Of a stretch of 12,512 bases of DNA, positions 1 through 10,573 are shown piece by piece (position 1 is the first letter of the stretch; every line of letters begins with the position of its first letter). Under the pieces are notes generated by a model. That model saw only the letters and a program-made list of their open reading frames with translations. It was not told the DNA's origin and did not search any database. Origin of the DNA: Alphaproteobacteria bacterium (GTDB lineage: Bacteria > Pseudomonadota > Alphaproteobacteria > Sphingomonadales > Sphingomonadaceae); contig JAENVZ010000058.1 of NCBI GenBank assembly GCA_016650315.1, positions 1-12,512 on the forward strand. The letters are read 5' to 3'. The position numbers were made by a program, and so were the translations under genes.

Positions 1-1170
1 GACATTGGCCGCGCATAGCGGCTCGGCGAGAGCGGCATGAAATGCCTCGCTCTGCGCACCCAATTCCTTCATCGCGCCCAGCACGGCCAGACGGCGCACA
101 CTCTGTTCACGGCCAAGCTGCTTCAAGGTAGCGGCCATCGACAGCGGATTGGCATTATAGCTTTCATCGATCAACAGCGCTTCGCCATCGGCAAAGGGGA
201 TGCGCGTCCGTGCGCCGCGTCCGGGAAGATCGGGCAATTCGGCGAGCGCCAGTCCCGCCACCGCCAGATCGCCGCCCACAACTTCCACCGCCGCCAGTAC
301 GGCCAGCGCGTTCGACACCCAATGTTCGCCCGGTGCGGCGATAGTGAGGCACAGCTCTCCTTCCGGCAGCTTGACCGTCACCAGCGTGCCGCCATTGACC
401 GCCGTGACGCTATCGACCGCGCGCACATCCGCGCCTTCATTGAAACCGAATCTCAGTATTTTCGCACCATGACGCTCCGCCGCGCCGGTCAGCCTTTCGG
501 CAAAAGGGCTGTCGGCGGGAATGATTGCCGTTCCGTCCGGCTCCAGCCCCTCGAAAATCTCCGCCTTTGCGTCGGCAATCGCCTCCATGCTGTCGAAAAA
601 GGCCTGATGCGCCGGAGCAATCGCAGTGATAATGGCGACATGCGGGCGCACGAGCGCCGTCAGCGCAGCCAGTTCACCGGCATGATTCATGCCCATTTCA
701 AAGACGCCGTACAGCGCGTCACGCGGCATCCGGGCCAAACTGAGCGGCACGCCAACATGATTATTATAGCTTTTGACCGAACGGTGCGCCCGGCCCGGCG
801 CACACCGGTCAAGAGCTTGAAAAAGCGCCTCTTTGGTTCCGGTCTTACCAACAGACCCCGTCACGCCAATGATCTTTGCCTGCGTCCGCGTTCGCGCGGC
901 GGCCCCAAGCGCGTTGAGAGCCGCAGTCGTGTCGTCGACCAGCACATGTGGATGATCGACCCGATGGCTGACGATGGCACCCGCCGCGCCCGATGCGAAG
1001 GCCTGTTCCACGAAACGATGGCCATCGGTCGCCTCCCCCGAAAGCGCGATGAACAGGTCGCCCGGTCCCACTTCCCGGCTGTCGAAAGCAACCCCGGTAA
1101 CGGCAAACGGCGCGGAAACCGTGCCGCCGGTGGCCTGCGCGATTTCAGCGGAGGTCCAGAGATCAATCAT
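1..1170 (-). CDS. murF: MurF, UDP-MurNAc-tripeptide--D-Ala-D-Ala ligase (3' end cut by window edge)
   Basis: MurF is the cytoplasmic ligase that adds D-Ala-D-Ala to UDP-MurNAc-tripeptide, the last Mur ligase step of peptidoglycan precursor synthesis. The frame is open from the ATG at 1170 to the left edge (390 codons, no stop), so about 60-90 C-terminal residues are missing compared with a usual MurF of 450-480. Visible motifs are the ATP-binding loop GVTGSVGKT (residues 102-110), YNNHVGVPL (135-143), FEMGMNHAGE (157-166) and, late in the protein, DESYNANPLSM, a MurF signature. The start has a good ribosome site (AAGGGG, 6 bases upstream). It is separated from murE by about 96 bases that hold a long palindrome, unlike the overlapping junctions upstream. 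The identification is firm. Confidence 0.97.
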   Translation of the reverse strand, partial: MIDLWTSAEIAQATGGTVSAPFAVTGVAFDSREVGPGDLFIALSGEATDGHRFVEQAFASGAAGAIVSHRVDHPHVLVDDTTAALNALGAAARTRTQAKIIGVTGSVGKTGTKEALFQALDRCAPGRAHRSVKSYNNHVGVPLSLARMPRDALYGVFEMGMNHAGELAALTALVRPHVAIITAIAPAHQAFFDSMEAIADAKAEIFEGLEPDGTAIIPADSPFAERLTGAAERHGAKILRFGFNEGADVRAVDSVTAVNGGTLVTVKLPEGELCLTIAAPGEHWVSNALAVLAAVEVVGGDLAVAGLALAELPDLPGRGARTRIPFADGEALLIDESYNANPLSMAATLKQLGREQSVRRLAVLGAMKELGAQSEAFHAALAEPLCAANV

Positions 1171-1182
1171 GCTGACCCCTTC

Positions 1183-1246
1183 CCGTTTGGTTCGAGCTTG
1201 TCGAAAATCCGATGCGCAGGGTTCTCGATAAGCTCGAACCAAACGG
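1183..1246. repeat. Long intergenic palindrome (REP-like) between murE and murF
   Basis: Two 22-base arms, 1183-1204 and 1225-1246, are inverted copies with one mismatch (1200/1229). Pairing continues inward through 1206-1210 with 1219-1223, leaving an 8-base loop at 1211-1218. The core GAGCTTGTCGA resembles a repeat family that I recall as scattered between genes in sphingomonads; no second copy is obvious in this window. There is no T-run after the stem on the minus strand, so it does not look like a rho-independent terminator. It ends one base from the AAGGGG ribosome site of murF (1176-1181) and could modulate murF translation, mRNA stability or processing. Confidence 0.85.
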
Positions 1247-1266
1247 AACGGGACTGGAAACCGCCT

Positions 1267-2721
1267 TCATGCCGCGCATTCCCGCGCCACGGTGACATCA
1301 TCGAAGGGCAGGATGCGCTGATTTTCTCCGGCACCCACGATTTGTCCCTGTTCATGGCCCTTGCCGGCAAGCAGAACAATGTCATCCACGCCCGCCTGCG
1401 CAATCGCGGCGGCGATGGCTTCCCGGCGCCCCCCAATTTCGATGGCGCCCGGCGCTGCCGCCATAATCGCCTTGCGAATCGCGGCGGGGTCTTCGGAGCG
1501 GGGATTATCGTCGGTCACGATGACGCTGTCGGCAAGCTCCACCGCAACCTTGCCCATTTCGGGGCGCTTGCCAGTATCACGGTCACCGCCAGCGCCGAAA
1601 ACGACAATAAGACGACCTCTGGTGTGCGGGCGAAGCGCCTTGATCGCGGCATCAAGACCATCGGGCGTATGCGCATAATCGACATAAATGGGCGCACCAG
1701 CCTTGCTGATCGCCGCGCGCTCCAAACGTCCACGTACCGGTTGAAGGCGCTCCAGGCAGCCCAAAATATCTTCCAGCTTTCCACCCGTCGCCAATATAAG
1801 AGCGGCAGCGGTCAGCGCGTTGGCCGCCTGATACGCGCCGATCAGCGGCAGATTGACACGGTGCGTCCTACCCTCCGCCTCGATCATCAGCACCTGACCC
1901 AAATGGGTCGGCGTGCGTGACAAAAGTTGCAGCGTTTCACCCGCTTCGCCAATAGTCAGAATGACAAGGCCGCGCTTTTTCGCCCGCGCAATGACATCAG
2001 GCGATCGCGCATCATCGGCCCAGATGACAGCAGCAGCGCCCGGTTCAACCACCTCCTCGAACAGCCGCATCTTGGCTTCGAAATAACTGTCCATGTCGCC
2101 ATGATAATCGAGGTGATCGCGGCTCAAATTGGTAAATGCCGCCGCCTGAACTGGCAATCCTTCGGTCCGGTATTGCGCAAGGCCATGACTGGACGCTTCG
2201 AACGCGGCATGGGTGATCCCTTCGCGGCAAAGGCCGGACATGTTTGACAGAAACGTCACTATATCGGGGGTCGTCAGGCCAGTGGACACCTGATCCACCG
2301 AAGTCGTGACGCCCAGTGTACCGATGGAAGCCGCCTTTTCGCCCATCATGCGCCAGATTTGCCGGGTCAGTTCGACCGTCGATGTCTTGCCGTTGGTCCC
2401 CGTGACGGCAACCACCGTCTTGGGAAAAGGCGCGAAATATTTTGCTGCCAATTGTGCGAACAGGCGGCGCGGACAATCGTCGACTAGATGGGCCGCACCC
2501 TTTACTTCCGCCTGGCGCCGGGCCACGATGGCGATGGCGCCTGCCGCGATAGCGTCATTGATAAAGTCCTCGCCATTGAAGCGCACTCCCTCAAACGCAC
2601 CGAATACCGTACCGGGCGCGACCTTGCGATGGTCGATGGCAAAGCCCGTCACTACGCTGTCCTGCATATCGCCAGACACGTCTCCGACAATCTGGCCGCC
2701 CGCAATCTGGCCAAGGCGCAT
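1267..2721 (-). CDS. murE: MurE, UDP-MurNAc-dipeptide ligase (meso-diaminopimelate adding)
   Basis: MurE is the cytoplasmic ATP-dependent ligase that adds the third stem-peptide residue to UDP-MurNAc-L-Ala-D-Glu. The 484-residue protein carries the P-loop GTNGKTS (108-114), TTPD (150-153), the NLSRDHLDYHG block (198-208), the lysine of the FEAKMRLF stretch (K217, the position carbamylated in the family) and KGHE (454-457). The motif DDNPRSEDP (404-412) contains DNPR, the signature of meso-diaminopimelate rather than lysine selection. The reading frame extends 9 codons further upstream. I chose the ATG at 2721 because it overlaps the ftsI stop by one base (TAATG) and follows a strong GGAGG site, whereas the longer start lies inside ftsI. 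Confidence 0.97.
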   Translation of the reverse strand: MRLGQIAGGQIVGDVSGDMQDSVVTGFAIDHRKVAPGTVFGAFEGVRFNGEDFINDAIAAGAIAIVARRQAEVKGAAHLVDDCPRRLFAQLAAKYFAPFPKTVVAVTGTNGKTSTVELTRQIWRMMGEKAASIGTLGVTTSVDQVSTGLTTPDIVTFLSNMSGLCREGITHAAFEASSHGLAQYRTEGLPVQAAAFTNLSRDHLDYHGDMDSYFEAKMRLFEEVVEPGAAAVIWADDARSPDVIARAKKRGLVILTIGEAGETLQLLSRTPTHLGQVLMIEAEGRTHRVNLPLIGAYQAANALTAAALILATGGKLEDILGCLERLQPVRGRLERAAISKAGAPIYVDYAHTPDGLDAAIKALRPHTRGRLIVVFGAGGDRDTGKRPEMGKVAVELADSVIVTDDNPRSEDPAAIRKAIMAAAPGAIEIGGRREAIAAAIAQAGVDDIVLLAGKGHEQGQIVGAGENQRILPFDDVTVARECAA

Positions 2722-4421
2722 TATTCTTCCCCCTCCTTGGGTTTCCACAGCAAAGGCATCAGTTCCGAAATATCGACGTCGCGGTTAAGGTCGGGATAGA
2801 TGCCCAGCATCGGACCGGTCCGCTCAATCACTTTCTTCACGATTGGGGCGGACGTCCATGCCGCCGTGCGCAGGCCAAAAGTCTCTGGCGTTCCTTTGGG
2901 TTCATCCAGCATGGTCAGGACAATATATTTCGGATTTTCCATCGGGAAGGCGGCGGCAAATGTCGTCACGAGTGAACTTCTTGCATATCCGCCCTGAAAT
3001 GGCTTTTCAGCCGAACCCGTCTTGCCGCCGACCCGGAATCCTTTCGCGTCGGCGCTTCTCCCTGTACCGGCTGCCACGATCATACGCAACAATTGCCGCA
3101 TCCGCGCACTGGTCGCGGCGGTAAAGACCCGGCGTCCCGTGGGCGCTTCGCCATCCTTCACTTTCTGGATCGTTGCGGGCCGCCAGATCCCGCCATTGAC
3201 AAGCGCGGCATAGGCACTGGCAAGGTGCAGCGGCGTGACCGCAATGCCATGGCCATAGGACACCGTCATGTTGGTAAGCCGTCCCCAGCTTGCCGGCCAG
3301 ATGGTGGAACCACGCTCCTTGAGTTCAATGGACGGGCGACGATCGAATTCCAGCTTACGGAATATGTCCTGCATCCGCTGCGGCCCCAGTTCATCAGCGA
3401 TCCGGGCAGTGGCGATATTGGAGCTGTGCACCAGCGTTTCAGGCACGTTGAGCCAACGCTTCAGCGGGTGATCGTCGCGAATATGGAAACCGCCAATGGC
3501 AAGCGGCGCGGTCGCATCATAGCGCTTGTTCATTGAGGTAACGACGCCCGCATCCATGGCCGCACCGATGGAAATCGGCTTGAAGCTCGATCCCAGTTCA
3601 TAGACCGCCTGCGTCACATCGTTGCGGCGAGCCTCCATATTGCCCTTGCGCAGCTTGTTGGGGTTGAACACCGGAAGCGACGCCATCGCAATGACTTCGC
3701 CGGTATTGACGTCGAGAATCAGGCCAGCGCCACCCAGCGCCCGATGCGCTTTCATCCCGGAGTAGAGTTCGCTTTCCATCGCCGCCTGAACCCGGCTGTC
3801 GATGGACAGGACAAGCGGTGTCGAACGCAATCGCTCGTCCGTCAGTCGCTTGTCGAAAGCACGCTCGACCCCCATAGCGCCCGCGCCATCCTGATCGACA
3901 AAACCCAGAACATGCGCGGCCAGCGTCCGTTGCGGATAGAGCCGTTCCTTCTCGCGCGGAAATTCGATGGCGATTTCACCAAGCGCATTGACCGCGCTCA
4001 CCTGTTCGGGAAGCGCCCGTCGGCGCAGATAGGTGAAGCGTGCCGGACTGGTCAGCCTGGCATAAAATTGGGCAACAGACTCATCGGGAAAAATATTGTG
4101 GAGGTTTTTGGCAATTTGCATGGGATCGCCAAGCAAAGCCCTGGGCCGGACAGCGATCGAATAGGCATCCATCGTCCGCGCCAGCGGCACGCCGTTGCGA
4201 TCCATAATATCCGCTCGCATCGGAATCAGGCTGACCGGGCCATGCCGCCCGGGCGCTCCATCGGCAAAAAGTCCCAGCCACAGCAACCGCCCGCCCACCA
4301 GCATGGTCGCGGCGAGGAACAGCAGCAGAAGAAGCATCAGGCGGTAATGCGCAACGGCCGTCAACTGATAGCGCTGACTGGCCGTTCTCACTCGTTCGGG
4401 ACGCGCGACGAGCGTCGTCAT
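2721..4421 (-). CDS. ftsI: FtsI/PBP3, septal peptidoglycan transpeptidase
   Basis: This is a class B penicillin-binding protein that cross-links septal peptidoglycan as part of the divisome, together with FtsW and the FtsQLB complex. The 566 residues fit the family. A short cytoplasmic tail is followed by one membrane anchor (about 28-50), a dimerisation/pedestal domain (about 65-200) and the transpeptidase domain. The three active-site motifs are intact: SSFK with catalytic Ser278 and Lys281, SSN (333-335) and KTGS (467-470). The ATG at 4421 shares one base with the ftsL stop (TGATG) and has a GGGAGGA ribosome site about 10 bases upstream. It is also known as pbpB. Confidence 0.97.
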   Translation of the reverse strand: MTTLVARPERVRTASQRYQLTAVAHYRLMLLLLLFLAATMLVGGRLLWLGLFADGAPGRHGPVSLIPMRADIMDRNGVPLARTMDAYSIAVRPRALLGDPMQIAKNLHNIFPDESVAQFYARLTSPARFTYLRRRALPEQVSAVNALGEIAIEFPREKERLYPQRTLAAHVLGFVDQDGAGAMGVERAFDKRLTDERLRSTPLVLSIDSRVQAAMESELYSGMKAHRALGGAGLILDVNTGEVIAMASLPVFNPNKLRKGNMEARRNDVTQAVYELGSSFKPISIGAAMDAGVVTSMNKRYDATAPLAIGGFHIRDDHPLKRWLNVPETLVHSSNIATARIADELGPQRMQDIFRKLEFDRRPSIELKERGSTIWPASWGRLTNMTVSYGHGIAVTPLHLASAYAALVNGGIWRPATIQKVKDGEAPTGRRVFTAATSARMRQLLRMIVAAGTGRSADAKGFRVGGKTGSAEKPFQGGYARSSLVTTFAAAFPMENPKYIVLTMLDEPKGTPETFGLRTAAWTSAPIVKKVIERTGPMLGIYPDLNRDVDISELMPLLWKPKEGEE

Positions 4422-5080
4422 CAGCGCATCATCCTCCCATTCTCCCGCGCCGCAAGGCGGGCAAGGTCGCCCATAGTATGATCATCCAGCAATGTTTGCT
4501 CCAACATCGCCATACGCTCAACACGCCGTGGCACAGGCGCGGTCTGCACCGATGCCGTACGGACAATCCTTGGTTCGGCCTTCTTTGCCGATGGCCGTAC
4601 AACCGCTGCAGGCGCAGAAGGTTGCGCAGGCGATGGCTTTACAACCGAAACAGTTTCGTGCGCCTGTGCGGCGGCCGGACCGGCAACCGCCTTTGCGACT
4701 GCTGCGACGGCGGCGGGCAAATCGTCCGCGGTTTCCACCATAGCGGTCATGACTGGCGCCGCGACATAGCCCGGACCATTGGGGGCAATGCCATCAAGGC
4801 TGGCCAGCGCCTTTTCGCCATTCAGATATTGCGCGACTGTCGGCGTTGAAAAACGGAAATTTTCATTGTTCCAGCGTTCAAGCTGGCGGAGGCTGGCGCG
4901 CGCCCCGAATTCGGTTTCCAGATAACGCATGTCCCGTTTCGTCGACAGGATTTGCGTTTCGACGCGCACCAGTTCTGTCCGCTCCGATGCAACCCGGAGG
5001 GAGACCAGATAGACAGCAATGGCACCAAGAGCCACCAGCAACACCCAGAAAATGCTTTGCAGACGTTTGACCGCGATCAT
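4421..5080 (-). CDS. ftsL: FtsL-like divisome protein with long Ala/Pro-rich tail
   Basis: Its place between rsmH and ftsI and its topology identify it as FtsL, the bitopic partner of FtsB and FtsQ that activates FtsWI. Residues 9-30 form one membrane span and about 31-70 a coiled-coil region (heptad-like, ending in [12 protein letters not shown]). After that comes a linker rich in Ala, Pro and Val (about 104-187), and a charged, probably helical end (about 188-219). At 219 residues it is much longer than the roughly 120 of E. coli FtsL, because of this tail. I chose the ATG at 5080 because it overlaps the rsmH stop as ATGA and has AGGAC just upstream. An ATG at 5095 would add five residues but lacks a ribosome site. 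FtsL diverges strongly in sequence, so the name depends mainly on context. Confidence 0.85.
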
Positions 5081-6021
5081 TGTCCTGTTCCCCATGCTGA
5101 AGCCGATGTGCGCACCGCGCTGCGCAAAGTGGCGGACCGCGCGCGCGGATTGAGCGAAATTTCCCTGTCGCCCGCGCGCACTGCCTTCGCGGGCTTTTCA
5201 AAGCTGGCCGATGGCAGGTCATCATTGACCGGGCGATGCCGCGAACCGGCCCCCTCACTCCCACTCCGGCGACGCAGGAATTGCTTCACGATCCGGTCCT
5301 CCAGACTGTGAAAGGTGACGACGGCCAGCCGGCCGCCCGGTTCCAGCACGGCTTCGGCCGCCACAAGTCCCTTTTCCAACTCGTCGAGTTCACCGTTCAG
5401 ATAGATGCGGATTGCCTGAAATGTACGGGTCGCCGGGTCTTTCTTGTCGCCTGCGCGATAGCCCACGGCCTTGCGGACCACAGCGGCCAGCTCCCCGGTG
5501 CGGCTGAGCGGACGCGCTTCGACGATGAAGCGGGCGATGCGGCGGGACCGATGCTCCTCGCCATAGCGATAGATGACGTCCGCTATATCCTGTTCGGCGG
5601 CGGTGTTTAGGAAATCCGCGGCGCTTTCCCCTGCCTGACTCATCCGCATGTCGAGCGGCCCGTCCGCCTGAAAGGAAAAGCCGCGCTCGGCCCGATCAAG
5701 CTGCATCGAAGAAACACCGATGTCGAGCGTGACACCGGAGACTTTGGCAACGCTCCGCGCCTCCAGAAGCCGTTCCATGTCAGAAAAGCAGCCCTCGATC
5801 AGTGTAAGCGCGCTACCTTGGGCCGCAGCGAGCGCCTGCCCTTCCGATATGGCGTCAGGATCGCGGTCAAAGGCAAAGACCTGCGCACCCCGTTCAAGCA
5901 TCGCCATGCTGTATCCGCCCGCGCCGAAAGTGCCATCGACATGGCGTTCACCCGGAACAATGGCGAGTGCGTCAAGAACTTCATCCAGCAGAACAGGAAT
6001 GTGTGGCGCGGCAGAGGTCAT
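5077..6021 (-). CDS. rsmH: RsmH (MraW), 16S rRNA C1402 N4-methyltransferase
   Basis: RsmH is an S-adenosylmethionine-dependent methyltransferase acting on N4 of cytidine 1402 in the decoding centre of 16S rRNA. The 314-residue protein shows HIPVLLDEV (7-15), the SAM-binding GTFGAGG (30-36), FDRDPDA (51-57), [11 protein letters not shown] (99-109), GFSF (114-117), GPLDMRM (121-127), [15 protein letters not shown] (198-212), [10 protein letters not shown] (237-246) and NPRARSA (291-297). I chose the ATG at 6021 because it overlaps the mraZ stop as ATGA and follows a GGGGG-rich site. The frame runs 12 codons further into mraZ, but those residues are not family-like. Confidence 0.97.
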
Positions 6022-6530
6022 TTCGACCCCCGCGCATTTTTGGGGTTCTTTTCCCATTCTTCCAGAGCGAATTCGGCGGCCAGCTTCAGCGCGTCATACA
6101 CGCCGTCGGTGGCGATAAGGGTATGGGGGTTCCACAATTCGAAATAGTCGCCCGAACCATTGATGAAGATGATATCTTCAATGCCGCACAGCTTCTTGAG
6201 AAAGGGGGAGATGAAGAAGCGGCCGCCATCATCGAACGGCACATCTTCCAGCAGACCGAATTTGCGCTGCATCGCCGCCGCGCGGCTGTAACCCTCGCCC
6301 CGGGCCAAAGCGAGTTGCTCCTCGCGGTCAATGTCGGCGCGCAAGGCCTGCTGATAGCTATGACCAAACCCGATAACGCAGTTAAAGTCTTCATGCTTGG
6401 TAAGGCAAAGCCGGTTCTGGCCGCCGCTGCTGGCCTGAATGACATGGCGCATGGACGCGGGGATGGAAAAACGACCCTTGCCGTCCATCGCGGTAAATGC
6501 AGGACCGGAATATAACCCGACTTCCAACAC
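6018..6530 (-). CDS. mraZ: MraZ, transcriptional regulator of the dcw cluster
   Basis: MraZ is a ring-forming DNA-binding protein with two AbrB/SpoVT-like halves. In E. coli it represses its own dcw operon by binding short TGGG-type direct repeats. The 170-residue protein has the first-half motif DGKGR (16-20) with FSIPASMR behind it, and the second-half motif [11 protein letters not shown] (99-109). It is slightly longer than the 152 residues of E. coli. The start is a GTG at 6530, followed at once by TTG, after a G-rich stretch (GGGGCGGGCGAG). This start is less certain than the gene itself. It heads the overlapping rsmH-ftsL-ftsI-murE chain, and the 10-base-spaced boxes at 6655-6699 are the likely binding site. 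Confidence 0.95.
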
Positions 6531-8376: not shown

Positions 8377-8751
8377 TCATGCAGCAAGAGCGGTTTCGAC
8401 GGCTTTCTGGAGTTGGCGACCAAAAATCGGCTTGAACAGAACCGCGCTTGGATGGTCGAGCTGAATGCGTGCCATCGTGGCCGGTTCCCGTGACCCAGTG
8501 ATAAAAATAACCTTCGAAATCCCCAGAGCGTGAATGGCGAGTGCTGCATCAACGCCGTCCTCCTCTCCTGCCAGACGCATGTCCATCAGAACCAGATCCG
8601 GGCGATGCTTTGTCGCCAATGCAACGGCATATTTGGCGGTCGCTGCTATGCCGCACACAGTCAGGTTCATGTCTTCCAGCTGTATGCGCAGACTTTCGGC
8701 GATGAGATATTCGTCATCGACGATAAGCACAGATGCTTTCTGCACGCTCAT
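8377..8751 (-). CDS. Stand-alone receiver-domain response regulator
   Basis: The 124-residue protein is a single CheY-like receiver domain with no output domain. Key residues are all present: acidic pair D12-D13, phospho-acceptor D57 (in VLMDMRL), T85 (in FITGS) and K107 (in FKP). It presumably takes phosphate from the kinase encoded directly upstream, since its ATG overlaps the kinase stop as ATGA. It then acts by protein contact or as a relay or phosphate sink. Sphingomonads have a FATGUY family of single-domain regulators (for example SdrG) in the general stress pathway. Here the equivalent segment reads FITGSR, so it is not a canonical member. The gap of 89 bases to cysK holds no clear terminator. 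Confidence 0.92.
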   Translation of the reverse strand: MSVQKASVLIVDDEYLIAESLRIQLEDMNLTVCGIAATAKYAVALATKHRPDLVLMDMRLAGEEDGVDAALAIHALGISKVIFITGSREPATMARIQLDHPSAVLFKPIFGRQLQKAVETALAA

Positions 8752-9977
8752 GACAGCGCCGGTACCGGAAGAGTTATTTTCGTTATCATTCCGCCCTCCC
8801 TCCTGATCTCCATCTTGCCGTTAAGCTGTTGCACCAGTCCTTTCACGATCCGGGTCCCAAGACCTGTCTTGTACAATTTTTTAACGCCGGTCGGGAGCGA
8901 CGCGCAACCATCGTCAGCAACAGTCAACACGACTTCGCCTCCCTTTTCATTAAGAGCCAGGGTTACCGCCACGTTTCCCTTACCATCGGGAAAGGCATGT
9001 TTCAGTGAATTCGTAACAAGTTCGGTGACGAGCAGACCCAGTGGAATGGCAAAATCCAGATTAACAGCCAGGGTGCAGGCATCGATCGTCAATGCAATCC
9101 CGCCTTCGGCGCCGCCCTCTATAATATGGCGCGACAGTTCCTTCAGAAATGGCGCGATGTCGAACGTTTGCAAATCGTGAGACGTCATGAGTTGCTGGTG
9201 CACCAGACCCAATGCATAAATCCGCCCGCGCAAGGACTCCAACGCATTCTTGGCCGCCGCGTCGTCCAGTTGGCGCGCCTGCATCATCACCATCCCGTCA
9301 ATGATTTGCAGATTGTTCTTCACGCGATGATAGACCTCCCGAAGCAAAAGGTCGCGCTGCTGGAGCGCAGCCGTGCGCTCATCGACCACCGCTTCCAGAT
9401 CCGCCTTGGCAACGCGCAGTTCCGCCAGCGTGTCGATCAACCGGTCGTTGGCGGCACTAAGGTCAGCGGTCCGTTCTTCAACCCGCCGTTCCAGTTCCGT
9501 ATTGGCGATGCGAACCTTTTCTTCGCTTTCACGGAGGAGTCGGGCCGTGCGATCCTGTTCTTCCACACGATGCGACAATTCGTCGTTGAGCCGGCCAAGC
9601 TGGGCGGGCGATGGTAACGCAAGAAGTTTCGGCACCAGCGGCCATAACAATATCGCAGTTCCGACCGATAGCATGGCGGTCACCACCTTAACCAAGCCAT
9701 CGATACCGTAGGCGGGCACCCATAATGTCAGTATTGCCATGAAATGCGTCATGCCGCACGCAAGGATGAAACCGACAAACAGGAAAAAGACCCAGCGATA
9801 TTCCAGGTCCGACCGCTGACGGACGAACCAGTATAGCGCGAGTGGAATGGAAAAATAGGCCAGACCGATAATGATGTCCGATACAGCGTGAAGCCAGATC
9901 AACCCCGGCGACCAAAGCAGACAAAAGCCATGCGGGGTCAGGCCGGTCGGATTGAATAACCAATTCCACAGCGTCAT
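8748..9977 (-). CDS. Sensor histidine kinase with ethylene-receptor-type membrane domain (HisKA_2 class)
   Basis: The 409-residue protein has an N-terminal three-span domain (about 28-117) matching the ethylene-binding domain of plant ETR1. Around DIIIGLAYFSIPL and ILACGMTH, residues D34, Y41, I44, P45, I71, C74 and H78 match ETR1 D25, Y32, I35, P36, I62, C65 and H69 with identical spacing. The Cys and His are the copper ligands. A coiled coil (about 125-205) links it to a HisKA_2 dimerisation domain with EVYHRVKNNLQ (phospho-acceptor H217) and an ATPase domain with TELVTNSLKH (N323) and GLGTRIVKGL (372-381). I chose the ATG at 9977; one at 10022 adds 15 residues without a good ribosome site. 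It overlaps the response regulator gene by four bases. The ligand is inferred, not shown. Confidence 0.9.
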   Translation of the reverse strand: MTLWNWLFNPTGLTPHGFCLLWSPGLIWLHAVSDIIIGLAYFSIPLALYWFVRQRSDLEYRWVFFLFVGFILACGMTHFMAILTLWVPAYGIDGLVKVVTAMLSVGTAILLWPLVPKLLALPSPAQLGRLNDELSHRVEEQDRTARLLRESEEKVRIANTELERRVEERTADLSAANDRLIDTLAELRVAKADLEAVVDERTAALQQRDLLLREVYHRVKNNLQIIDGMVMMQARQLDDAAAKNALESLRGRIYALGLVHQQLMTSHDLQTFDIAPFLKELSRHIIEGGAEGGIALTIDACTLAVNLDFAIPLGLLVTELVTNSLKHAFPDGKGNVAVTLALNEKGGEVVLTVADDGCASLPTGVKKLYKTGLGTRIVKGLVQQLNGKMEIRREGGMITKITLPVPALS

Positions 9978-10043
9978 GATCGCCCACCCCTTCGTACAAG
10001 ACCGTTCCACCGCTGGCCCCATCTCTTACGGTGGCATACCGAC

Positions 10044-10225: not shown

Positions 10226-10250
10226 GGAACCAATGCGCGATGTCCTCGTT
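10226..10250 (+). promoter_or_regulatory. EcfG-type (general stress response) promoter
   Basis: GGAAC (10226-10230) and CGTT (10247-10250) are separated by exactly 16 bases, an exact match to the GGAAC-N16/17-CGTT consensus of the alphaproteobacterial stress sigma factor EcfG/SigT. A T-rich run (10217-10223) precedes it. The start of transcription would be near 10257, followed by two hairpins and a terminator rather than an open reading frame. Nine fixed bases at set spacing in one intergenic region are unlikely by chance, though not impossible. Confidence 0.7.
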
Positions 10251-10303
10251 TGGATACTCGGATAGCAAATCTTTTGCCCCCCGCTCTTGCTGTCCGATAA
10301 CAT

Positions 10304-10358
10304 GGGCCCGGAACGCTTTCTCCCCCCCCCCCGACGGCGTTCCGGGTCCTATGTTTTT
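10304..10358 (+). terminator. Rho-independent terminator of the predicted small RNA
   Basis: The arms 10304-10316 and 10337-10349 form 13 pairs, 12 of them standard and one G-U. A T run (10354-10358) follows four bases after the stem on the plus strand. The minus strand has no T-run after the stem, so it acts rightward. No plus-strand protein gene lies upstream, which is a main reason to predict a non-coding transcript. It stands 87 bases before the entericidin gene, which it may insulate. Confidence 0.75.
10322..10332 (+). repeat. Run of eleven C in the terminator loop
   Basis: An uninterrupted C11 tract lies in the loop of the terminator hairpin. Such tracts are prone to slipped-strand length change and also to sequencing error, so the true length may vary. 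Confidence 0.9.
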
Positions 10359-10444
10359 CTGAGGTCTCCCAAACCCATTATTCATTAGACTGAAAGCCTC
10401 GCCGGTTTATGATGTGGTCGAGTTTTCCAATAAGGACGCCTGTC

Positions 10445-10573
10445 ATGAAAAAGAATTTGGCCATTGTCGCACTTTCCGTTGCCCTGACGCTGCTAGCCGC
10501 ATGCAACACTGTGAAGGGTGCCGGACGCGACATTGAATCCGTTGGCAGCGCGGGCGAAAAAGTCATCAACTAA
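10445..10573 (+). CDS. Entericidin-type small lipoprotein
   Basis: The 42-residue product has a signal peptide (MKKNLAIVALSVALTLLAAC) with lipobox LAAC and the lipidated Cys at position 20. A mature part of only 23 residues follows (NTVKGAGRDIESVGSAGEKV...). The CNTVKGAGRDIE segment is the hallmark of the entericidin A/B family, small membrane lipoproteins linked to stationary phase and stress. AAGGA lies 8 bases before the ATG. A possible -10 (TATGAT, 10408-10413) lacks a good -35. It is the only protein gene on the plus strand and converges with the prepilin peptidase gene. Read-through from the stress-type promoter at 10226 could also express it. Family recognition is confident; the function in this organism is unknown. 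Confidence 0.9.
   Translation: MKKNLAIVALSVALTLLAACNTVKGAGRDIESVGSAGEKVIN

What the first reader, a model, noticed from the sequence alone, without database searches (positions are those of the whole stretch)
10226..10360. Predicted EcfG-dependent small RNA with two C-rich loops, resembling GsrN
An exact GGAAC-N16-CGTT promoter is followed about 7 bases later by a compact RNA of two hairpins, ending in a rho-independent terminator with no reading frame between. Both loops display C runs (C6 and C11) suited to pairing with G-rich ribosome sites. Caulobacter GsrN is under the same sigma factor type, is of similar length and uses a C-rich loop to control katG and other mRNAs. This may be the sphingomonad counterpart or a separate RNA with two anti-ribosome-site loops.
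Basis: partly seen in the sequence, partly recalled or inferred. Interest (0 to 1): 0.85.

Follow-up and report, generated by a model that had tools for sequence, protein, structure and literature searches.

The report
Stress-linked small RNA of sphingomonad bacteria

Summary
Window 10226-10358 carries GGAAC-N16-CGTT, then two hairpins with C6 and C11 loops ending in a T run. The promoter alone is not significant in this window; conservation decides. A covariance model of the RNA body, built without the promoter, matches 116 of 298 family genomes. Of 111 matches fetched, 109 have the promoter directly upstream, 102 of the 103 not used for the model, against 0.37% expected. Each of 23 base pairs shows two-sided changes. 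0 of 374 terminator-like hairpins in a relative has a C6 loop, against 58 of 62 detected in this family. A kinase of one cluster lies upstream in 76 of 111, PhyR-like proteins in 40 of 77; the window itself lacks phyR and nepR. No Rfam family matches. Best reading: an EcfG-transcribed base-pairing RNA that works like GsrN. No targets were found: katG leaders (1 of 24) and translation starts give no signal. Expression is unproven.

The parts
10226..10250 (+). EcfG-type promoter, GGAAC (10226-10230) - N16 - CGTT (10247-10250)
   Evidence: such an element directly upstream of 109 of 111 homologous RNAs, the window included. Fits the S. melonis Fr1 EcfG motif GGAAC-N17-20-GTT (PMC6599016, passage).
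10257..10358 (+). small RNA, about 100 nt; 5' end inferred from the promoter, 3' end from the T run
   Evidence: Covariance model matches 10253-10356; fold z -7.15; no Rfam match. No transcript data.
10258..10297 (+). hairpin 1; loop 10269-10286 with C6 at 10277-10282, the proposed main seed
   Evidence: in A5 (100 sequences) six C columns are 97-100% C and all 9 pairs have two-sided changes.
10299..10360 (+). hairpin 2, intrinsic terminator with C11 loop (C run 10322-10332) and T run from 10354
   Evidence: all 14 pairs have two-sided changes; C run of 6 or more in 101 of 111 homologs.
10445..10573 (+). entericidin-family lipoprotein gene, frequent downstream neighbour of the RNA
   Evidence: PF08085 26.2 bits over cut-off 23.3; entericidin-like ORF downstream in 87 of 110 homologous loci by a regular expression; promoter-like TAGACT-N16-TATGAT at 10386-10413 (1 found, 0.3 expected in shuffles).
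8748..10022 (-). divergent histidine kinase with ETR1_N and HisKA_2 domains
   Evidence: PF25487 134.3 bits, PF07568 73.4 bits.
8377..8751 (-). single-domain response regulator beside the kinase
   Evidence: PF00072 60.2 bits; PhyR-family model only below its cut-off (81.7 of 240 bits).

Best explanation
A free-standing small RNA gene of the general stress response. Stress releases sigma EcfG (through PhyR and NepR), which transcribes about 100 nt from the GGAAC-N16-CGTT promoter; the second hairpin terminates transcription. The exposed C6-C7 stretch of the first loop, and probably the C run in the terminator loop, then base-pair with G-rich stretches of mRNAs and change their translation or stability, as GsrN does in Caulobacter. 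Shown by sequence: promoter, structure, conservation, both C-rich loops, location. Inferred: transcription, EcfG dependence, base pairing, help from Hfq, direction of regulation, targets.
For: Promoter upstream of 102 of 103 fetched matches not used to build the model and of 116 of 118 places found by a loop pattern in named genomes. Each of 23 pairs changes on both sides in some sequence, 96.4% of cells paired, 0 of 500 shuffles, slid controls 30-44% (alignment fitted to the model). Loop 1 is about as conserved as its stem (1.38 and 1.33 bits per column), leader and linker much less (0.36, 0.51). A second copy in genome G248 (L116) keeps the loop ACCTTTTGCCCCCCCGCTCTC on a different stem. Terminator C run of 6 or more in 101 of 111; such loops in 0 of 374 terminator-like hairpins of a relative. 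A protein of one kinase cluster lies within 700 nt upstream in 76 of 111; PhyR, NepR and HisKA_2 confirmed on representatives. GsrN: six tandem cytosines in the 5' loop read G-rich targets (PMC5869019, passages).
Against: No expression data seen. No target found: katG leaders 1 of 24 at p<0.05; the true loop is no stronger at 1455 leaders than in gene bodies (means -17.0 and -17.3 kcal/mol) and not stronger than 24 shuffled loops; the pattern GGGGGGCAAA-N0-9-ATG gave 16 matches against 4 of a reversed control but no recurring gene among downstream ORFs of 30 aa or more. 182 of 298 family genomes have no match at the strict setting. The window copy has no phyR or nepR beside it.
Confidence: 0.8

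Rival explanations
1. It is an anti-Shine-Dalgarno RNA of the CcsR / CCUCCUCCC kind: C-rich loops mimic the 3' end of 16S rRNA and block ribosome sites of many mRNAs.
For: CCTCC occurs at the terminator C run in 55 of 111 homologs; C-rich loops.
Against: The window copy has no CCTCC there. Loop 1 is GCCCCCC(C)GCTCT, not CCTCC. No preference for translation starts over gene bodies in 1455 genes of a relative, tested with loop 1 only. No Rfam match. EcfG-type promoter, whereas CcsR is RpoH-dependent (recalled).
Confidence: 0.2
2. It is not a free RNA but a leader or attenuator of the entericidin gene, or the 3' end of the kinase mRNA.
For: Entericidin-like ORF downstream in 87 of 110 loci; kinase gene end close upstream where that cluster is present (median 72 nt to the model start).
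Against: The terminator hairpin lies before the entericidin gene, which has its own promoter-like site in the window. In the window the kinase is divergent, so the RNA cannot be its 3' end there. Own promoter in 109 of 111. 23 of 110 loci show no entericidin-like ORF.
Confidence: 0.08
3. The C-rich loops bind a protein (sponge or scaffold) rather than mRNAs.
For: No mRNA target found; the C runs vary in length, which a protein might tolerate.
Against: The closest likeness, GsrN, pairs with mRNA through a C-rich loop (PMC5869019); loop conservation extends beyond the C run.
Confidence: 0.1
4. Chance: a C-rich palindrome with a promoter-like string.
For: The promoter pattern alone is expected about 0.7 times per window.
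Against: Covariation, conservation over many genera and the promoter at a nearly fixed distance.
Confidence: 0.01

Closest known systems
GsrN (Caulobacter crescentus, sigma T / EcfG-dependent sRNA; PMC5869019, abstract, section 14 and passages)
   Same: EcfG-type promoter; about 100 nt; exposed C-rich 5' loop with six or more cytosines, strongly conserved; intrinsic terminator; homologs typically near the core stress genes. Sites in its target table such as UCGGGGGGCG imply a GCCCCCCG core, also present in the window loop (my inference).
   Different: Different bases around the C run; a second C run in the terminator loop; entericidin and tatC as frequent neighbours; no katG signal. The paper found BLASTn hits only in Caulobacteraceae and no gsrN-like gene in its outgroup Erythrobacter litoralis (a relative of sphingomonads; that placement is recalled).
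CcsR / cuckoo / CCUCCUCCC sRNAs (Rhodobacter and others; search listing only; details recalled)
   Same: Stress-induced, C-rich loops that resemble the anti-Shine-Dalgarno sequence.
   Different: Other promoters and loop motif; no Rfam relation found.
RepG (Helicobacter pylori; seen only as a reference entry; details recalled)
   Same: A pyrimidine-rich terminator loop that reads homopolymeric G stretches, a model for the C11 loop here.
   Different: Unrelated organism, promoter and sequence.
SuhB sRNA of Sphingopyxis granuli TFA (PMC6563040, passages)
   Same: Small RNA of a sphingomonad.
   Different: 61 nt, more transcribed at high growth rate, lowers translation of thnR.

Membership tests
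GsrN | transcribed from a sigma EcfG promoter | tested here: met
   By sequence only: 109 of 111 homologs, 102 of 103 independent of the model.
GsrN | intergenic RNA of about 100 nt ending in an intrinsic terminator | tested here: met
   By sequence only.
GsrN | exposed C-rich 5' loop as a highly conserved part | tested here: met
   Six C columns 97-100% C over 100 sequences.
GsrN | near core general stress genes (phyR, nepR, ecfG) | tested here: inconclusive
   Frequent in relatives: kinase cluster within 700 nt in 76 of 111; PhyR-like cluster upstream in 40 and NepR-like in 25 of 77 places with at least 2.7 kb upstream (clusters by BLAST, the window's own kinase and response regulator are counted in them; identity confirmed on representatives). 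ecfG was not looked for. The window has only a divergent HisKA_2 kinase and a response regulator.
GsrN | sequence homology with Caulobacter GsrN | not testable with these tools
   No GsrN sequence was at hand.
GsrN | pairs with the katG leader | tested here: not met
   1 of 24 leaders (from 22 genomes) at p<0.05, crude duplex model with uncertain start codons; katG family not found in 17 of 41 genomes with the RNA.
GsrN | Hfq-stabilised, cleaved to a 51-54 nt 5' isoform | not testable with these tools
   Needs RNA blots.
any Rfam 15 family | score above the gathering cut-off | tested here: not met
   0 matches in the window; in five loci only F6, E 0.6, below its cut-off.
CcsR / CCUCCUCCC sRNAs | anti-Shine-Dalgarno loop motif (recalled) | tested here: inconclusive
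   CCTCC at the terminator C run in 55 of 111, not in the window copy.
SuhB sRNA | 61 nt RNA induced at high growth rate | tested here: not met
   Predicted length and promoter type differ; no sequence comparison was made.

The most novel reading that the evidence does not exclude
This is the missing post-transcriptional arm of the sphingomonad general stress response: a two-seed RNA in which both a conserved C6-7 5' loop and a homopolymeric C run inside the terminator loop read G-rich mRNAs. Stems drift while both C runs are kept, and a second copy in one genome carries the same loop on a different stem.
Probability: 0.4. Interest if true: 0.8.

Novelty: new variant of a known kind. Interest (0 to 1): 0.7.

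Why it matters
The general stress response has been dissected in sphingomonads such as S. melonis Fr1, yet term searches in two of their EcfG papers show no EcfG small RNA. A conserved RNA with an EcfG-type promoter, often beside phyR, nepR and a HisKA_2 kinase, would show that a C-loop small RNA is a recurring output of this response beyond Caulobacter, and it gives a family model and promoter ready for tests. The C run inside the terminator loop is unusual and raises the question of a terminator that doubles as a seed.

Tried and rejected
katG as the shared target: rejected on present evidence (one search used badly placed start codons and was redone). Sites GGGGGGCAAA-N0-9-ATG in 41 genomes: 16 matches, 4 in the reversed control, no recurring gene among downstream ORFs of 30 aa or more. 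Ranking 1455 leaders in 1.6 Mb of relative G462 against 24 shuffled loops: no enrichment. Class-wide search for an EcfG promoter followed by C6G: 25 matches in 21 of 289 genomes, against 30 for the reversed control; in the window's own genome the RNA locus is the only match. A weak match outside the family, G608 (E 5.7e-5), lacks the promoter and was not counted. tatC loci of 30 genomes without a strong RNA match (G004 and G073 have weak ones, E about 4e-5, without the promoter): no EcfG promoter followed by a C run of 5 or more. First gene-calling by longest ORF gave shadow frames and was replaced (then 43). Plasmid collection: no match.

Full report
What is in the window. The + strand at 10226-10250 reads GGAAC-N16-CGTT. 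Seven bases on, the sequence folds into two hairpins: 10258-10297 with an 18-base loop holding C6, and 10299-10355 with a loop holding C11, with TTTTTCT at 10354-10360. The fold is -48.3 kcal/mol, z -7.15, none of 200 shuffles as good. The promoter string alone is no surprise in a window of this size (95 of 200 shuffles), and no Rfam family matches (in five loci one search gave only F6 at E 0.6, below cut-off).

Relatives. A plain DNA search found the RNA in 8 of 59 related genomes, the window's own included. All eight had the promoter or a near form (one reads CATT instead of NGTT). I aligned the RNA bodies only (A2) and built a covariance model, R1. R1 matched 116 of 298 genomes of the family at E<=0.001, 42 of 96 genera, 120 places. 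I fetched 111 of the 120; the nine weakest were left. A second model, R2, from 100 of these matched 90 of 296 genomes drawn from the order; every genome with a match is of the window's family, but the answer does not show how many of the 296 are not. In 289 genomes drawn from the class R2 matched 3: two of the family and one doubtful. A more sensitive search of 40 genomes, nearly all without a match before, gave 15 with anything at E<=0.5; of the 20 matches one (L264, same family) has the promoter. Thirteen of the 40 belong to other families of the order; their four matches are at E 0.1 or worse and lack the promoter. The genome of the window's own genus, G001, has a contig of the same length (393842) as a Rhizorhapis suberifaciens contig, so the window is probably from Rhizorhapis.

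Promoter. Of the 111 fetched places 109 have GGAAC-N15-18-NGTT ending 1-6 bases before the model start: 79 CGTT, 19 GGTT, 7 TGTT, 4 AGTT; spacer 16 in 97 and 17 in 12. Eight of the 111 were used to build the model; of the other 103, 102 have it. The exceptions are L073 (CATT, one of the eight) and L093 (GAAAC). Background in the same loci is 108 in 1,064,854 positions, 0.37% per search window. In the named set 116 of the 118 with enough upstream DNA have it; the other two end in GCATT. The spacing fits the EcfG motif GGAAC-N17-20-GTT derived from transcriptome data of Sphingomonas melonis Fr1 (PMC6599016, passages).

Structure and loops. On A5 (100 sequences) each of 23 pairs changes on both sides in some sequence, 96.4% of cells pair, 0 of 500 shuffles reach this and slid versions fall to 30-44%. 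A5 was fitted to the model, which favours the structure, but the margin is large. Loop 1 has 1.38 bits per column against 1.33 in its stem, 0.36 in the leader and 0.51 in the linker; its central six C columns are 97-100% C. Genome G248 has a second copy (L116) with the promoter and the same loop on a different stem. The terminator stem varies strongly, yet 101 of 111 keep at least six C in a row there. In 0.8 Mb (both strands) of relative G462, 0 of 374 terminator-like hairpins have C6 in the loop; in the family, where the same scan sees 62 of 111 terminators, 58 do. The C-rich terminator loop is thus a kept feature, not a habit of that genome.

Place. The commonest order is phyR (opposite strand), nepR, a HisKA_2/HWE kinase, the RNA, an entericidin gene, then tatC and tatB pointing back. 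PhyR (NF006623, 374 over 240 bits), TatC (TIGR00945, 234 over 133 bits), NepR (PF18557, 30.6 over 25.7), HisKA_2 and entericidin were confirmed on representatives only. Counts by BLAST clusters of called genes: kinase cluster within 700 nt on the upstream side in 76 of 111 (in one search two members, the window and G001, point the other way); tatC within 700 nt downstream in 86 of 111; entericidin-like ORF in 87 of 110; among 77 places with at least 2.7 kb upstream, PhyR-like in 40 (the window's response regulator is in that cluster), NepR-like in 25, any of kinase, PhyR or NepR in 49 and none in 28. In S. [quoted passage not shown] In the window the arrangement differs: a divergent HisKA_2 kinase with an ethylene-receptor-like domain and a single-domain response regulator on the left, entericidin on the right, and no phyR, nepR or tatC among the neighbours.

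Mechanism. The best reading is an EcfG-transcribed RNA that pairs with G-rich mRNA stretches through loop 1 and perhaps loop 2. GsrN provides the model: six tandem cytosines in its 5' loop, G-rich targets, activation of katG supported by compensatory mutation (PMC5869019, passages). The sites in its target table imply a GCCCCCCG core, which the window loop also has (my inference). I could not find targets. The katG family was found in 24 of 41 genomes with the RNA (22 over the cut-off) and not in G000; of 24 katG leaders from those 22 genomes one pairs with loop 1 at p<0.05, which is chance (crude duplex energies, uncertain starts). Over 1455 genes in 1.6 of 2.07 Mb of G462 the true loop binds leaders no better than gene bodies (-17.0 and -17.3 kcal/mol) and not better than shuffled loops. 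This speaks against a general aim at ribosome sites, but says little about a few specific targets.

Comparison with the known. Features shared with GsrN and those not met or not testable are listed in the membership table. It works like GsrN by anatomy; I do not file it as GsrN, because the katG feature was tested and not met and descent could not be tested. Tien and colleagues found GsrN by BLASTn only in Caulobacteraceae, predicted others by transcription, position and promoter, and saw no gsrN-like gene in Erythrobacter litoralis (PMC5869019, section 14 read). Term searches in the main text of two sphingomonad EcfG papers found no small RNA of this kind (PMC6599016, no occurrence of the terms; PMC7083833, only a reference to SuhB); supplements were not open to me. 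Ten full-text searches listed no paper whose title or shown abstract start describes this RNA; the library lacks most subscription journals, so this is not proof that it is unpublished.

Verdict. New variant of a known kind, interest 0.7.

Noticed in passing
window 8377-10022: A divergent histidine kinase with an ethylene-receptor-like ETR1_N domain plus HisKA_2, overlapping by a few bases a single-domain response regulator; a candidate input to the general stress response beside the RNA.
   Followed up: partly
L116 (G248:C1:2293343-2293439): Second copy of the RNA in one genome with an identical loop on a different stem and its own EcfG-type promoter. Second matches also occur in G006, G013, G078, G024 and G404; of these only the G013 copy (L114) was fetched and it has the promoter.
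   Followed up: partly
L105-L108, L110, L115: A divergent version (first hairpin around AAGCCCCCC) with the same promoter, near an amidohydrolase-like protein and in four of the six a TPR-like protein (names by eye); no stress gene cluster in the flanks fetched.
   Followed up: partly
window 10445-10573 and 87 of 110 homologous loci: An entericidin-family lipoprotein gene follows the RNA in most places examined; why the two stay together is unknown.
   Followed up: partly
window 1-6530, - strand: Cell wall and division cluster: ORFs that look like murF, murE, a penicillin-binding protein, rsmH and mraZ (by eye, not tested).
   Followed up: no
G029 katG leader, L333: One katG leader carries GCGCGGGGGCAAAAAG, a long complement of loop 1 (p 0.025); the only one of 24 at p<0.05.
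   Followed up: no
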